From Cyanobacteria bacterium SW_9_44_58 (GTDB lineage: Bacteria; Cyanobacteriota; Cyanobacteriia; Cyanobacteriales; Rubidibacteraceae), in assembly GCA_003021905.1 (NCBI GenBank), contig PXPI01000012.1, positions 1 to 62,735 of the forward strand: a stretch of DNA of 62,735 nt, given 5' to 3'. The number at the start of each line of letters is the position of its first letter. Position 1 is the stretch's first letter. The notes under the pieces are model-generated. The model ran no database searches and had not been told where the DNA came from. It worked only from the letters and a program-made list of their open reading frames with translations. Below are positions 558 through 57,518 of this stretch, piece after piece. Made by a program: the position numbers and the translations under genes.

Positions 558-1373
558 GTGCTAACGAGTATCAAAAACCCCCTAATTAAAAATATTCGGA
601 AACTTCATTACAGTAAACATCGCAAAGCCCAACGCCTATTTTTACTAGAAGGAACGAATTTAGTCGAAGCGGCATTTCAGGTGAACTATCCGCTGGAGGC
701 AGTTTGCTATACCTCTCACTGGCAAAATAAGCATCCTGATTTATCTGAAAAAATCCAACAATGGGCGCAACGGACAGAAGTCGTTTCCCCAGAGATTATT
801 CATGCGATTTCAACGACAAAAACGCCTGATGGCGTGATCGCGATCGCGCCCCATTTTTCTTGGCAATTCCCTGACCCCTCCACAATACAATTAGGACTCA
901 TTTTAGAACAACTGCAAGATCCAGGGAATATGGGAACCATTATTCGCACAGCGGCTGCCGCTTTCGTAGAAGGCATCTGGGCAAGCGAAGATAGTGTGGA
1001 GTTTGATCATCCCAAAGTGTTGCGGGCTTCTGTTGGGGCTTGGTTTCGTCTGCCCATGGCTACTACTAGCGATTTATCTTCCTTAGTTCAACAATTTCCG
1101 GGGCAAGTGGTTGCCACTGTTCCCACAGCAGAGAAAACCTATTGGGAAGTGGATTTTCAAAAGCCTACCCTGATTTTGATGGGCAACGAAGGGGCAGGAT
1201 TATCCCCAGAATTGGCAAATTTAGCCGATGAGCAGGTAACGATTCCTGTTGCAACTGGTGTGGAATCTTTAAACGTCGCGATCGCGACTTCCTTAATTTT
1301 ATACGAAGCAAAACGACAAATCGCGATGAACAATCATACTATATCCCCTTCGGGTAAAAATTGTTCTAAATAA
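558..1373 (+). CDS. SpoU/TrmH-family RNA 2'-O-methyltransferase
   Basis: This 271-residue protein is predicted to transfer a methyl group from S-adenosylmethionine to a ribose 2'-OH in tRNA or rRNA. The three SPOUT motifs are present in order: DPGNMGTIIRTA (about 121-132), GNEGAGLS (about 210-217) and ESLNVAIATSLILYE (about 236-250), the last forming the trefoil-knot cofactor site. The N-terminal 90 residues match the substrate-binding domain seen in RlmB/TsnR-like members. The start is GTG; codons upstream fall in repeat R1. The 3' end overlaps the convergent protease gene by 40 bases. The exact RNA target cannot be assigned, so no symbol is given. Confidence 0.9.
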   Translation: MLTSIKNPLIKNIRKLHYSKHRKAQRLFLLEGTNLVEAAFQVNYPLEAVCYTSHWQNKHPDLSEKIQQWAQRTEVVSPEIIHAISTTKTPDGVIAIAPHFSWQFPDPSTIQLGLILEQLQDPGNMGTIIRTAAAAFVEGIWASEDSVEFDHPKVLRASVGAWFRLPMATTSDLSSLVQQFPGQVVATVPTAEKTYWEVDFQKPTLILMGNEGAGLSPELANLADEQVTIPVATGVESLNVAIATSLILYEAKRQIAMNNHTISPSGKNCSK

Positions 1374-3547
1374 TTCTGAACTTCCTCCCCACTGTGACGA
1401 GTTGCGTCTTCTCCAATGACATTATCGACTAATTGATTACCTTGCCTTCCCAATAAAAACCGTAACGTTAAAAACCCATCAGTTTCTCCCTTCACTTTTC
1501 CATTACCATCCACATCTAAGAATGAGGATTCGGCTTGGGACAAATAGCTTTCAATCGCATCTGCACTGTCTCGGGCAGCATCTGGTGCCACTGCATTATT
1601 TACTAACCCTTCTCCCCTCAATCCAAACAGATAGCGGGCAATTAATACCCCATCCGTCAAAGCTTGAGCATCACCATTGTCATCTACATCTAGCGTCAAA
1701 CTTTCTGATGCCGCTAAAGGTTGTTGATTGCTTTCTAAGGCGCTTAATGCCTCATCCGCTTGAATTAATCCTTGTCCTGTTACCAAGTCAAACCCAGTAT
1801 CAAATTCTGATGTACTGGGATCATCCATGTCGATTGCTGTTGTTTCCAACAAATTCTCGATCTGGGCTGGCGTTAAGCTCGGATCGGCCTCCTTAAGGAG
1901 AGCGGCTGTAGCGGCAGCATGAGGGGCGGCAGCAGAGGTGCCAAAAAAGTTTGGATTAGAATCGGAATCGGCAGGAATATCCTTGCCGAAAAACGTGGTA
2001 TTGGTGCCATCAGGGGCAACAATATCGGGGTTTTTGCGAACTTCCACCTCTTGTAAGCGATTTCCTTGATTATCAAATTGGATGGGTGTCCCGCCAGTAG
2101 AGGAAAATTCCTCAACTTGGGGCGGATTCGTGCCAAACGCCGGCGTATCTGTAAAAGCGGCAGCACCGACGGATATTGCCCCTTCGGCATTGGCATGACC
2201 AAAAATCGTACTACTATTAGTATCAAACTCTTCAATGGAGAGATTTCCAAACCCAATATATTTCATTAAATCAGGACTTTCGCTATCTAAGGTTTTACCA
2301 ATGGCTAAATTAAAGGTATTTCCTACTACTGAACTATCATTGGTGAAACTAAAAATTTCTAAGGGATTCTTTCCTTGATTTGCCTCAAAACTGCCAGCAA
2401 TAACATCTGTTTTGTCTTCATTCAATAAGAAAATATCAACATCATTTTGCGCTCCCTTTCCTCCACTAAGGTTGGGAAAAGGTTTGTCCCACTGAAAAGA
2501 CAATTTAACTTGTTCCCCTTGAGGAATTGTTAGTTCTTGGAATAAATCAGTTCTAGAACTGGGATCAAAATCGTGGGCTTCCAGTCGAAAGTTTCCTAAA
2601 TCAAATACTTGGCCACTGGGGCGAAATTCACTCTGATAACTTTGGCGGCCGCTATTGCCTGCTGCCGAGAAGTAAGTTACTCCTTGTTCTGTTACTTGAT
2701 CTATGGCCTGGCTAATAATGCCGTCTTGAAAAAAGGGCTCATTTAAATAAGCCACATCATCAACAATAATATCTGCTCCTGCTTGCGCTAACTCTAAAAT
2801 TCCCTGGGCAAAGTTAACTTTTCCTCCAGCGGCAGTGTGAAAAGCTAAATTAGCATCTGGGGCAACATCATGGATAAGTTGCAACATGGCGCGTCCTTCA
2901 TCAGTTCCCCCTTGCTGTAAATCGGATAAAACATTGACATCTGACGGTAAGTCGCCGCTGGCAATATCGCTACTTGCCCCACCTTGACTGTTGAAACTGT
3001 CAGAAATAACGCCGATAGTTACATCGTCTCCAGTAAAGCCGAATTGATTGGTGACAATGTCTGCGTTAGTGGCAGTCTTAGCTTGCGAGGTAGTACTGCC
3101 AACATTTTGAATTAGTTGATCAGCAGAGGTTGCTAAGGATTCACGACTGATTTTCCCGAAACTAGCATCCCCTAAATTAGGGGTTTTTGATGGAAGCGGA
3201 CTAACATTTACCTCTTTTGGATTAGCAATTTCTGGAATAAAAAAATCGTCAATTGCTGCGCGATCGCTGTTCAATAGGGGCTGAATTGAGGAGGGATTAA
3301 CCAACTGATTATTGCTTTCGACACTTAAATTAAATCTTGATAAATTACTTACGAAATTGCCGTTATTTTTGCTGAAAAGCAACTCGGTTGCTATGGGAGT
3401 CTCATCTAGGTTTAAAAGCGGAATACTAGACCGATCTTCTTTTGTAATTTGATATTTGTTGAAATCATTTTGATTGGGGCCAGGGCTAGTTAAGGAAGAG
3501 TTAATGACACGATTAAAACTTTTTGTATTCCAAAAAACAGCAGACAT
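1334..3547 (-). CDS. subtilisin-fold (S8/S53-like) protease with C-terminal EF-hand/dockerin-like repeats
   Basis: 737 residues. The first 160 are low-complexity and unassigned, with no clear signal peptide. The protease domain spans about 165-600: Asp in TIGVISDS (about D183), the oxyanion Asn in FSAAGNSG (about N298) and the nucleophile in FFGTSAAAPHAA (about S538). Where subtilisins carry the catalytic His (HGTHVAG), this protein reads GTDEGRAML (about E217), which suggests a Ser-Glu-Asp triad as in sedolisins; that alignment is an inference. The C-terminus has two Ca-binding-type repeats, LDVDDNGDAQALTDG and LDVDGNGKVKGETDG, resembling dockerin modules. Single gene on the minus strand with an AT-rich upstream region. 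Confidence 0.8.
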   Translation of the reverse strand: MSAVFWNTKSFNRVINSSLTSPGPNQNDFNKYQITKEDRSSIPLLNLDETPIATELLFSKNNGNFVSNLSRFNLSVESNNQLVNPSSIQPLLNSDRAAIDDFFIPEIANPKEVNVSPLPSKTPNLGDASFGKISRESLATSADQLIQNVGSTTSQAKTATNADIVTNQFGFTGDDVTIGVISDSFNSQGGASSDIASGDLPSDVNVLSDLQQGGTDEGRAMLQLIHDVAPDANLAFHTAAGGKVNFAQGILELAQAGADIIVDDVAYLNEPFFQDGIISQAIDQVTEQGVTYFSAAGNSGRQSYQSEFRPSGQVFDLGNFRLEAHDFDPSSRTDLFQELTIPQGEQVKLSFQWDKPFPNLSGGKGAQNDVDIFLLNEDKTDVIAGSFEANQGKNPLEIFSFTNDSSVVGNTFNLAIGKTLDSESPDLMKYIGFGNLSIEEFDTNSSTIFGHANAEGAISVGAAAFTDTPAFGTNPPQVEEFSSTGGTPIQFDNQGNRLQEVEVRKNPDIVAPDGTNTTFFGKDIPADSDSNPNFFGTSAAAPHAAATAALLKEADPSLTPAQIENLLETTAIDMDDPSTSEFDTGFDLVTGQGLIQADEALSALESNQQPLAASESLTLDVDDNGDAQALTDGVLIARYLFGLRGEGLVNNAVAPDAARDSADAIESYLSQAESSFLDVDGNGKVKGETDGFLTLRFLLGRQGNQLVDNVIGEDATRHSGEEVQNYLEQFLPEGDIV

Positions 3548-54683: not shown

Positions 54684-57518
54684 TCATGAAAAAGAAATTA
54701 TTTGATGAATGGCATTCACCAGTTTTTTTAACTGTACCGGTTTGGCAAAATATTGATCAGCGCCGGCATCGAGACATTTTTCCTCATCGCCTGACATAGC
54801 AAAAGCAGTCAGGGCAATAATGGGGGGGTTGATGGAATTGGGTTCCGCCCGTAGCCGGCGAATGGCTTCCAGTCCATCTAGTTCCGGCATTTGAATGTCC
54901 ATCAAAATCATATCAGGTTGTTCTTGCAAGGCTTGCGCGATCGCGTCCCAACCATTGGTTGCAACCACCACCGAATATCCTTTGGCTTCTAAATAGGAAG
55001 AGGTGGTGAGAACATTTGCTTCATCATCATCGGCAATTAAAATTTTTGGCGAACGAGTGCCGAATCCGCTTGCTTCAAGGGTTGCATAATTTTCCGTGGA
55101 AGTTTCTAGAAATTGTTCTGTTTCTTGGCTGGGATAGTAAGGAATGGTAACGGTAAAACAACTCCCTTCTCCCACTTGACTGCTGACAGTTACCTCGCCG
55201 CCATGTAAATGAGCTAAGCGTTTTACTAAAGACAAGCCCAACCCGGTTCCTTACAGCGCTCCATTCCAACCAGCGATAGGAACCGTCGGCACAACGGTAG
55301 CGATTGATGAAATAGGGAACTGATTCCCCTCTAGCTAGTTGCGCGATCGCGCTTTGGGTGGCGTCTCTGTCATCAGGATGGACGAAATTTAGGAAATAGC
55401 ATCCTTCCAGTTCAGCAAGGGAATAACCCAAAATGTCTTCCCAGCGTTGATTTAAACGGGTGAAATAGCCTTGGGTATTGGCAATACACAGTAAATCGAG
55501 ACTGACGGAGAAAAAATGATCCAGTTCTTCGTTTCGTTTCTCTAAGTCGGCAGTGCGAAGGGCTACTTGGTTTTCTAAATCGGCATTAAGGGCTTCTAAA
55601 TTGGCAAGCGCTTCTGTGCGTTCCAATTCTACGGCAATGCGATCCCCTAAAACATCGAGAATTAATTTCAAGCGATTAATATCGGTAAGGGGTTCATTGT
55701 GGATAATACACAAATGTCCCAGCACTTCTTTGCTTAAATTATACAAAGGCACACTGATATATCCTTGTGCGCCGATTCTTTGCAACAAGGAATTATTGGG
55801 GAAATCCTCTTGCAATTTTTCCGGGTAAGCTAAACCGCCATGGCGAAGAGCAACTGCGCAAGGGGTGTATTCTTGTTCTGAGAGGGTAAAGTTCGGTTGC
55901 CATTGCCCGTCGCCCCAAACCGCAATACTTTGCAGTTCCTGTTGTTGTTTTCGGTAAAGAAGAACCCAACTCACGTCTAAGGCATTGGCAATATACGCCA
56001 CCACAGAGGCAAAAAAGTTTTCGCGGCTCACATGTTTCGTTGCTTCTACCAGAGTGCGCCAACCCTTTTCCACGTTTTTGCGTTCCGTAATGTCTAAAAC
56101 AACCCCGTTAAACACAATATTGCCATTTTCAGCTTGGGAAGGGGTATTGGCAATTCCTTGCACCCAACGGATACCTTGCTGGCTACAAACCCGAAATTCA
56201 CATTGCCAACGGGTTTTTTGGCGAATTGCGGTTTGCGTTTTTGTTTCCACTTCTTGCACATCTTCGGGATGAATCCGCTCAAACCAATGGCTGGCTTGGG
56301 AGGGATCCACATCGGAGGGAATCCCAAATAACGCCAGCGCCCCTTCATTAGCAAACGGAACCGACCATTTCCCCTCCGGCGTCGCCACAAATTGATAAAT
56401 TCCCCCAGGCACACTGTTGGCAATATCCAGGAGTTTGCTTGTCGATTTTCTAACGCTTGTTGCGCTTGTTGACGCTTTTTGACTTCGCGACGGAGGTTGC
56501 GCTCCGTGATGGCTTGTTCCAGCGCGATCGCGCATTGACGGGCCCCTCGTTTCACCAGATCTACTTCTTCCTCTCTCCAATAGCGGGGGGTTTCTCCGTC
56601 ACTCACCATCAATAAACTCCACACTTTTCCTCGGCAGATAATGGGAACAATGAGGCTGGCGCGAATCTGAAACTTGAGAAAGGGGGATTGATCCGCTACG
56701 TTCAGTTCTGAATAGACATCATTGATCACTCGCGCCTGAAATTGATGATAGCGTTGACACCATTCCGGGCTGGGATAAAATTCCCGAATTCGAGAAGTTT
56801 GCAGCGGCTGTTTTGATTCAATGCTAGCTTGGGAACGAACTTGCGCGCTGCGATTTTTGTAAATTTGGTAAATCAGGGCGCGATCGCAGTTTAGAAACGT
56901 TCTAATTTGTTGAGTCGTAATATCTAAAATTGCCTGAACATCTAAAGAAGACCGAATCTGTTGCGAAAGAGAATTTAAAAACTGTTCCGATTGCAGTTGC
57001 CGATTTAAATCTTCGGTGCGGCTTTGGGCAATTGTATTTTGATTGGGGGAATTAGGTTGTGAAAGACTTGTCGTTATGGAAGCGCGATCGAACAAAATTT
57101 GGCGAAAAAGCCAATCACGTTTTAAGATACCAACTAATTCTTCGCTATTATCATCAATAACTGGAATTTCTGTAACATTGCTCGTTTGAAAAATTTCCCA
57201 AATTTGAGCCCAACTTGTTAATTGCGAGTAATAAATTGTGGGGTCCGGCGGCAACATCACCGCCTTCACTGGCAAGTTTTCCAACTCATTTTCCTGTCCC
57301 CAGCAACTTAGAATTTGTTTTGCCGTAATGATTCCTAGTAATTGATTCTGGGCAACAACCCAAATCCAGTTGACACTCGAAGCACTGCCATGGGTTTCCG
57401 GTTCAGAAATGAATAAGTTTAGGGCTTCCCTAACCAAACAATCGGGGTGAATCACTAATGGAGAAAAACAAATTGTCTTTTGAATCTCTAGTTGTGAGTT
57501 ATCAGGGTTGCCCAACAT
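54684..57518 (-). pseudogene. broken hybrid histidine kinase (CBS-GAF-PAS-GAF-PAS...receiver)
   Basis: Three minus-strand frames make one gene. Frame 57518-56094 starts with a CBS pair and a GAF domain (LNCDRALIYQIYKNRSAQVR) up to RRE VKKRQQAQQALENRQ. A frameshift near 56435 moves reading to the frame that continues SKLLDIANSVPGGIYQF, with PAS, GAF and PAS through YRCADGSYRWLEWSA. Near 55250 this joins directly to the HATPase end, GTGLGLSLVKRLAHLHGGE, in another frame, so the rest of the PAS, HisKA and most of the ATPase are missing. A complete receiver (MILMDIQMPELDGLEAIRRL) follows to 54684. Two independent lesions argue for a true pseudogene rather than a single sequencing error. Confidence 0.85.

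What the first reader, a model, noticed from the sequence alone, without database searches (positions are those of the whole stretch)
1334..3547. Subtilisin-fold protease with Glu where the catalytic His is expected
Asp (TIGVISDS), Asn (SAAGN) and Ser (FFGTSAAAP) are in place, but the His motif is replaced by GTDEGRAM. This suggests a sedolisin-like Ser-Glu-Asp triad in an S8-like frame. It also carries two Ca-binding dockerin-like repeats, unusual for a non-cellulolytic phototroph, implying attachment to a cohesin-like or surface partner.
Basis: partly seen in the sequence, partly recalled or inferred. Interest (0 to 1): 0.5.

Follow-up and report, generated by a model that had tools for sequence, protein, structure and literature searches.

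The report
Subtilisin-fold protease with glutamate as base
A cyanobacterial gene encodes a subtilisin-shaped protease in which the usual catalytic histidine appears to be replaced by a conserved glutamate, and it ends in a dockerin-like plug whose probable socket, a cohesin-fold domain that standard searches miss, exists in related cyanobacteria but was not found in this genome.

Summary
The gene (1334-3547, minus strand, 737 aa) is real. Glu217 is Glu in 57 of 57 relatives with that column. It probably sits where subtilisin has His64: it opens the helix of a confident subtilisin-fold model and aligns with the catalytic Glu of sedolisins, though plain alignment to subtilisins does not show it. 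His226 and His237 vary. One correction: Ser182 (56/56), not Asp183, aligns with Asp32, and invariant Asp264 aligns with Ser125 in most alignments (not), so the acid may have moved to a third place. The oxyanion Asn is kept. This subfamily appears to have been described in 2007 (recalled, not read).

The tail is two 57-residue calcium-loop repeats, dockerin-like but not Pfam dockerins. Related cyanobacteria encode a domain that folds as a cohesin: 13 matches in a same-genus genome with the orthologous protease and tail, none here. In one other genus a cohesin-dockerin-like protein, usually with a propeptide domain, lies directly upstream of propeptide-less copies of this protease. Function is inferred throughout.

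The parts
1334..3547 (-). whole protease ORF, 737 aa, ATG start; its last 40 bp overlap tail to tail with the rRNA methyltransferase-like ORF 558-1373 (+) (name by eye)
3113..3547 (-). N-terminal region (aa 1-145), counterpart of the propeptide of relatives but badly diverged: 23% identity to the same-genus orthologue over 111 aligned codons, no hit with the family propeptide profile at E 0.1
1712..3100 (-). subtilisin-fold catalytic domain, about aa 150-612
   Evidence: AF2 pLDDT 93.2; Foldseek and VIA; Pfam PF00082 E 8.7e-17
3002..3004 (-). Ser182, aligned with subtilisin Asp32 (56/56 Ser)
   Evidence: (local run)
2999..3001 (-).
2897..2899 (-). Glu217, probable counterpart of His64 and general base (57/57 Glu)
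   Evidence: one search aligns it four residues further on
2756..2761 (-). Asp263-Asp264 (58/58 each); Asp264 aligns with subtilisin Ser125 and is the likelier catalytic acid
   Evidence: (S53); against: (on Asn123) and the S8 run (in a gap)
2654..2656 (-). Asn298, oxyanion residue of S8 type (58/58)
2213..2635 (-). beta-rich insertion (about aa 305-445) between the oxyanion Asn and the S1 region; very weak likeness to a C-terminal domain of PDB 9ues and 3afg
   Evidence: strands; domain 4, 3.6 and 2.9 bits
1934..1936 (-). Ser538, nucleophile in GTSAAAP (54/54)
1529..1696 (-). dockerin-like repeat 1 (aa 618-673)
1355..1525 (-). dockerin-like repeat 2 (aa 675-731)

Best explanation
A subtilisin-fold serine-carboxyl protease of the subfamily in which Glu replaces the catalytic His. 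Ser538 attacks the peptide bond, Glu217 acts as general base, Asn298 holds the oxyanion as in subtilisin. The acid that supports Glu217 is more likely Asp264, at the end of the strand that carries subtilisin's Ser125, than Asp183, because Ser182 occupies the Asp32 site: in effect Asp and Ser have changed places across the active site. It descends from a zymogen with an N-terminal propeptide and works outside the cytoplasm. The C-terminal calcium-loop repeats are a dockerin-like plug that in relatives has cohesin partners. Shown: the ORF, the conservation, the predicted fold, the Ser182 register. Partly shown: the Glu217 and Asp264 registers. Inferred: catalysis, the identity of the acid, secretion, calcium, docking.
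For: Glu217, Arg219, Asp263, Asp264, Asn298 and Ser538 are invariant in the rows that have them. Glu217 is the first residue of helix 88-99 of the model, as His64 starts helix C of subtilisin (helix C recalled), and the Gly after it is kept (56/57) as in His64-Gly65. Global hhalign with three S53 sequences places Glu217 on the S53 catalytic Glu with no gap from there to the shared AP motif, and Met221 on the S53 catalytic Asp, so the S53 acid is missing; the S53 Glu replaces the subtilisin His (PMC6278154, passage). Ser182 on Asp32: (local run); the model strand also ends at Ser182. Asp264 on Ser125: both hhalign runs, three MAFFT runs; on the matching S53 Ser. In solved subtilases residue 125 is Ser in both main groups, with two exceptions, and a water links it to the catalytic acid (PMC11593635, results section), so an Asp there is well placed. 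Same-genus orthologue: Ka 0.21 against Ks 1.6 in the catalytic domain, 0.24 against 2.3 in the tail. Cohesin fold and genomic link.
Against: Direct HMMER alignment to two subtilisin BPN' chains puts His64 on Gly213, Glu217 on residue 68 and Asp264 on Asn123; positions 213-214 vary in the family, so I do not follow it. Other S8 alignments gap or miss the His64 region, and in the S8 run Asp264 falls in a gap. Asp183 is nearly as conserved (54/56). I found no activity data or structure for this subfamily. The propeptide region of this copy is degenerate, and the two paralogues in the same genome have a stop and a frame change, so this copy could be decaying. Ks is near saturation. No cohesin was found in this genome. 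No secretion signal was demonstrated.
Confidence: 0.5

Rival explanations
1. Same enzyme, but Asp183 is the acid, reached by a one-residue bulge in the strand, so that the triad is Asp-Glu-Ser in the classical subtilisin order.
For: Asp183 is conserved in 54/56 and lies directly after the first strand. The recalled abstract of Siezen 2007 speaks of a catalytic Asp on a beta strand, which could be this one.
Against: Each alignment that covers the region puts Ser182, not Asp183, on Asp32 without a gap there (local run, 108). Ser182 (56/56) and Asp264 (58/58) are more conserved. L034 has Asn at 183 with DEGRAM, the Asn motif and GTSAAAP kept.
Confidence: 0.32
2. A pseudoprotease: the subtilisin fold serves only for binding and the Glu marks a lost active site.
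For: I found no activity data. Degenerate propeptide here; broken paralogues in the same genome. CspC, a solved pseudoprotease, is among the Foldseek hits. Ten relatives start within 50 residues of the domain and so have no propeptide in the same ORF (L013-L016, L018-L020, L030, L032, L034).
Against: Ser182, Glu217, Arg219, Asp263, Asp264, Asn298 and Ser538 are invariant across phyla; lost active sites drift. A propeptide profile built from 18 members also finds, more weakly, about a dozen others.
Confidence: 0.12
3. A His (226, 237, 325, 451 or 543) takes over as base.
For: His451 is 53/58 and His325 50/58.
Against: None is invariant (226: 41/57, 237: 29/58, 325: 50/58, 451: 53/58, 543: 45/54). 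His226 is nine residues along the helix from Glu217, and His543 has a counterpart in ordinary subtilisins (GTSMASPH).
Confidence: 0.04
4. The tail is not a docking module but a calcium-dependent folding or secretion module, as RTX repeats are in other family members.
For: Some other members end in RTX-like repeats, a PEP-CTERM-like end or a T9SS-like end at the same place (labels by eye and recalled). No cohesin in this genome, where the tail is unique.
Against: The same repeat pair follows a cohesin-fold domain in proteins of G353, G341 and G143 and stands next to cohesin-like ORFs in G222. The profile's best PDB hits are dockerins, though weak (E 0.015-0.057).
Confidence: 0.35

Closest known systems
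Subtilases with Glu at the His position, reported as a novel subset by Siezen, Renckens and Boekhorst 2007 (Proteins 67:681; title seen in reference lists, abstract recalled, paper not held); CDD cd05562 Peptidases_S53_like (recalled)
   Same: Glu for His, Ser nucleophile, an Asp on a strand rather than on the Glu helix
   Different: Dockerin-like tail; the Asp assigned here to the 125 site; I could not read the paper to compare members
MEROPS S53 sedolisin/kumamolisin
   Same: Glu in the same helix position, Ser nucleophile, GTSAA motif
   Different: No Asp four residues after the Glu (Met 52, Leu 5 of 57), Asn instead of oxyanion Asp, no Pro-kuma_activ domain in the protein or in 244 genomes of the phylum
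MEROPS S8 subtilisin
   Same: Fold (Z 32.1-34.3 in the 50 rows), oxyanion Asn, GTSxAAP motif; one annotated relative is named 'S8 family serine peptidase'
   Different: Ser at the Asp32 site; Glu and Asp at the probable His64 and Ser125 sites
Cellulosomal cohesin-dockerin pair
   Same: Partner domain of relatives folds as a cohesin; repeats hold a DxDxNG loop and a helix
   Different: Repeat of about 57 aa with a longer loop, below Pfam thresholds; cohesin not found in this genome
CspB of Clostridium (PDB 4i0w)
   Same: Top Foldseek hit (E 1e-16); subtilase with an extra beta domain (jellyroll, PMC3567191 abstract passage)
   Different: A subtilase with a catalytically competent site and a prodomain that stays bound (PMC3567191, passages); only an analogy

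Membership tests
S8 subtilase | subtilisin fold | tested here: met
   e.g. Z 33.4, rmsd 2.1 over 252 residues to 6ube
S8 subtilase | catalytic Asp-His-Ser | tested here: not met
   no invariant His; Ser at the Asp32 site in 56/56; Glu217 57/57
S8 subtilase | oxyanion Asn | tested here: met
   Asn298 58/58
S53 sedolisin | Glu base at start of the helix | tested here: met
   hhalign; model
S53 sedolisin | Asp four residues after the Glu | tested here: not met
   position 221: Met 52, Leu 5 of 57
S53 sedolisin | oxyanion Asp | tested here: not met
   Asn 58/58
S53 sedolisin | Pro-kuma_activ propeptide | tested here: not met
   not in the Pfam scan of the protein; PF09286 0/244 genomes of the phylum; present in 2 of 8 other genomes that hold a relative, in G527 in separate S53 genes
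Glu-for-His subtilase subset (Siezen 2007) | Glu for His with the Asp on a strand | tested here: inconclusive
   Glu. Which Asp is catalytic is not settled (Asp264 or Asp183, both after strands); definition recalled, paper not read
Dockerin type I | match to PF00404 | tested here: not met
   none in the tail, none of 19 repeats, none over the cut-off in the genome
Dockerin type I | duplicated calcium-loop plus helix | tested here: inconclusive
   D-x-D-x-N-G loop repeated twice, one residue longer; helices in the model of L062, none made of the window tail; best PDB hits are dockerins at E 0.015-0.057
Dockerin type I | binds a cohesin | not testable with these tools
   -
Cohesin (partner domain in relatives) | cohesin fold | tested here: met
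   Foldseek E 2.1e-7, VIA Z 12.5 rmsd 2.7 over 136; integrin domains follow at Z about 10
Cohesin (partner domain in relatives) | match to PF00963 | tested here: inconclusive
   2 of 11 members, best E 0.0076

The most novel reading that the evidence does not exclude
Clan SB has a third way to build its active site: Asp32 to Ser, His64 to Glu and Ser125 to Asp together move the catalytic acid to a third segment of the fold while keeping a neutral oxyanion Asn. Some cyanobacteria run these proteases through an unrecognised cohesin-dockerin system, in which the propeptide (chaperone and inhibitor) is supplied in trans by a neighbouring propeptide-cohesin-dockerin-like protein. The window protein is a single-chain version with its own plug.
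Probability: 0.3. Interest if true: 0.75.

Novelty: new variant of a known kind. Interest (0 to 1): 0.55.

Why it matters
A 2024 survey of 53 subtilisin-like structures divides them into two groups by where the catalytic acid sits (PMC11593635, results section). This subfamily could be a third; the PDB sequence searches showed no close relative with a solved structure among the rows listed. It makes a direct test possible: can a subtilisin-type enzyme with a neutral oxyanion residue work with Glu as base, and at what pH? A cohesin fold hidden below Pfam thresholds in cyanobacteria, next to these proteases in one genus, points to extracellular docking outside cellulose degraders.

Tried and rejected
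His226/His237 as catalytic: rejected on conservation and on place in the model. Plain sedolisin: rejected on the missing helix Asp and the Asn oxyanion. Direct alignment of the His64 region with S8: HMMER puts Gly213 on residue 64 and Glu217 on 68; protein comparison aligned only the C-terminal part; hhalign and MAFFT misplace or gap the S8 HGTH segment. The His64 equivalence therefore rests on the S53 alignment, the model helix, the conserved Glu-Gly and the established S53-S8 superposition. On rechecking the calls I found these contrary registers and that of Asp264, and lowered two odds: best explanation from 0.55 to 0.5, novel case from 0.35 to 0.3; I raised the rivals Asp183 (0.30 to 0.32) and a His (0.03 to 0.04).

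S53 structures do not appear in the 50 rows shown of the fold searches, nor in the 60 rows shown; this excludes nothing. Horizontal gain: considered because G150 and the other same-order genomes listed lacked the gene, but the larger order sample has it in 26 of 195, and the same-genus genome G222 has the orthologue next to the same convergent ORF, so I do not claim it. Plasmids: tail no match; catalytic domain in 3 of 72,556 records. NCBIfam: hits only far below cut-off. PADLOC: one generic subtilase model on residues 452-586. Literature: led to the 2007 title only in other papers' references, and paper reading did not hold it; among the rows listed (17 of 17; 2; 0; 15 of 46; 2; 6) I saw no study of this subfamily's activity; among those (20 of 36; 14; 4), none on cyanobacterial cohesins. 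The tail alone was not modelled: the second AlphaFold job went to a relative holding cohesin and repeats (L062).
Full report
WHAT IS THERE. The ORF is real: 1334-3547 on the minus strand, 737 aa from an ATG. Pfam sees only Peptidase_S8, best in the C-terminal half (E 8.7e-17). By eye there is no hydrophobic leader at the N-terminus.

HOW CONSERVED IT IS. I collected relatives with whole-genome searches (27 of 194 genomes of the class at E<=1e-20; 26 of 195 of the order at E<=1e-10; own genome counted in both) and with one scan of GTDB species genomes (15 loci whose titles name cyanobacteria, Bacteroidetes, Planctomycetes, Gammaproteobacteria, Actinomycetota and Nitrospirae; phyla of the two Planctomycetes and of Larkinella and Hymenobacter recalled). 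The seeds of that scan did not include the GTDEGRAM motif. Sixty distinct rows were aligned, fragments included (a first alignment of 46 gave the same picture). Among rows that have the column: Glu217 57/57, Gly218 56/57, Arg219 57/57, Asp263 58/58, Asp264 58/58, Asp275 58/58, Asn298 58/58, Ser538 54/54, Asp183 54/56. Ser182 and Ser184 are 56/56. Histidines vary: 226 41/57, 237 29/58, 325 50/58, 451 53/58, 543 45/54. So the Glu is the rule of a subfamily, not an oddity of one gene.

STRUCTURE. AlphaFold2 on residues 130-612 with 45 sequences gave pLDDT 93.2 and pTM 0.91 (model number = protein number minus 129). The 50 PDB rows shown by VIA are subtilases at Z 32.1-34.3, for example 252 residues at 2.1 A to a subtilisin; CspB is Foldseek's first hit. 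Glu217 (model 88) is the first residue of helix 88-99, as His64 is in subtilisin (recalled). His226 (97) is near the end of that helix, His237 (108) in the next strand. No coordinates were available, so this rests on secondary structure and alignment, not on distances.

IS GLU217 THE HIS64 COUNTERPART. For: global hhalign with three S53 sequences puts Glu217 on the catalytic Glu with no gap to the shared AP motif, and in S53 that Glu replaces the subtilisin His (PMC6278154, passage); the model helix starts there; Glu-Gly is kept as His-Gly is. Against: HMMER with two subtilisin chains puts Gly213 on residue 64 and Glu217 on 68, and the other S8 alignments gap or miss the segment. Because 213-214 vary in the family and Glu217 does not, I keep Glu217.

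WHICH RESIDUE IS THE ACID. HMMER against solved subtilases aligns GFTGDDVTIGVISDS with GYTGSNVKVAILDTG without a gap, so Ser182 falls on Asp32 and Asp183 on residue 33 (the profile does the same with 9ues and 3afg). hhalign with S53 and S8, its local run with four S8 sequences, and MAFFT in three modes on 10 family members with 3 S8 and 3 S53 sequences agree; the global run did not align this part. The model strand runs 177-182. Asp264 falls on subtilisin Ser125 in both runs and all three, and on the Ser before the Trp of the S53 SSSWG motif; but one search puts it on Asn123, and the single-sequence S8 run leaves it in a gap. A 2024 survey calls residue 125 part of a catalytic pentad, Ser in both main groups of subtilases (two exceptions), joined to the catalytic acid by a conserved water; it places the S53 acid on the Glu helix, four residues on (PMC11593635, results section read). 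In this family that helix position is Met or Leu (57/57). I therefore favour Asp264 as the acid: Asp32 to Ser and Ser125 to Asp look like an exchange across the site. Asp183 remains the main rival, since a bulge could bring it in. Because the oxyanion residue is Asn, not the Asp of sedolisins, an acid optimum does not follow.

IS IT KNOWN. Siezen and colleagues (2007) reported prokaryotic subtilases with other catalytic residues. I saw that title in reference lists. From memory, its abstract describes a sedolisin-like subset whose Asp is on a strand; that fits, but I could not read it. One annotated plasmid relative is called simply 'S8 family serine peptidase'. The rows listed by my searches showed no experimental study.

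THE TAIL. Residues 618-731 hold two repeats of about 57 aa. Across 19 repeats Leu3, Asp4, Asp6, Asp16 and Arg22 (numbering of the first repeat) are invariant, a calcium-type loop one residue longer than the usual twelve. Pfam Dockerin_1 does not match; the profile's four best PDB hits are dockerins at E 0.015-0.057. In this genome the tail is unique; among 194 genomes of the class it was seen in 2 at E<=1e-6, own included. The same-genus genome G222, not in that sample, has a 70% identical protease with the same tail beside the same convergent ORF. Between the two, Ka/Ks is about 0.13 in the catalytic domain and 0.10 in the tail, with Ks near saturation. Dockerin repeats on a subtilase have been listed before, in Halobacterium (PMC2605481, passages).

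A HIDDEN COHESIN. In G143, G341 and G353 the repeat pair follows a beta-sandwich domain. AlphaFold2 on one such protein (L062, 276 aa, pLDDT 86.6, pTM 0.65) gave Foldseek hits whose first 29 rows come from cohesin entries (best E 2.1e-7; integrins follow) and VIA Z 12.5. Pfam Cohesin sees 2 of 11 members, at E 0.0076 at best. A profile of this domain finds, at E<=1, 52 matches in G353 (two of them at E 0.002, some partial), 13 in G222 (10 at E<=2e-9, three at 0.004-0.7), 10 in G341, 2 in G143, 1 in G262 and none in G000, G150, G309, G321 and G294. In G222 the repeat pair closes an ORF that lies directly before an ORF opening with the cohesin-like domain (L078, L089). So possible partners exist in the genus, but in this genome (99.7% complete) none was found.

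A SPLIT ZYMOGEN. In G353, 6 of 7 protease matches, and in G341 1 of 1, have a cohesin-like match 529-571 bp upstream on the same strand; chance of one within 1 kb is about 0.004 and 0.0007 for each. These copies are close relatives and count as one inherited arrangement, not seven events; G222's protease has none nearby. A propeptide profile built from other members' N-termini hits 5 of the 6 upstream proteins for which I held a locus (E 4e-13 to 1.5e-28: L062, L055, L084, L087, L081) and not the sixth (L096); the one on C5 was not fetched. The protease ORFs of L055 and L062 start just before the catalytic domain and give no propeptide hit. The window protein has no hit either, though its orthologue L054 has two copies. 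Ten other relatives also lack a propeptide in the same ORF; I did not look upstream of those.

STATE OF THIS COPY. Both paralogues in the genome are damaged: C116 has an in-frame TAA just before GSDEGRAM, C115 changes frame. The window copy is open throughout and its conserved residues are complete, but its propeptide region is degenerate. Decay, or a changed way of folding, cannot be excluded.

Noticed in passing
L063 (G000:C116) and L064 (G000:C115): Two paralogues of the protease in the same genome: one has an in-frame TAA just before GSDEGRAM, the other a frame change within the catalytic domain. Assembly error or decay.
   Followed up: partly
G353, e.g. L076, L081, L084, L093, L096, L099, L102: 52 matches of a cohesin-like domain in one 6.4 Mb cyanobacterial genome, many with identical scores, in the loci read placed near the C-termini of varied proteins together with the dockerin-like pair; looks like recent spread of a module.
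   Followed up: partly
L062, L055, L081, L084, L087: A propeptide domain of the protease sits in a separate upstream protein with cohesin-like and dockerin-like modules.
   Followed up: partly
window 55075-57518 (-): Two overlapping ORFs in different frames (55075-56580 and 56094-57518) read by eye like one CBS/GAF/PAS sensor gene broken by a frame change.
   Followed up: no
L108 1325-1466: A Rhizobium plasmid S8 protease has a separately annotated 'protease inhibitor I9 family protein' gene next to it, another propeptide-like protein encoded apart.
   Followed up: no
window about 2213-2635: The beta domain inserted in the catalytic domain very weakly resembles a domain that lies at the C-terminus of PDB 9ues and 3afg, so it may be a moved domain.
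   Followed up: no
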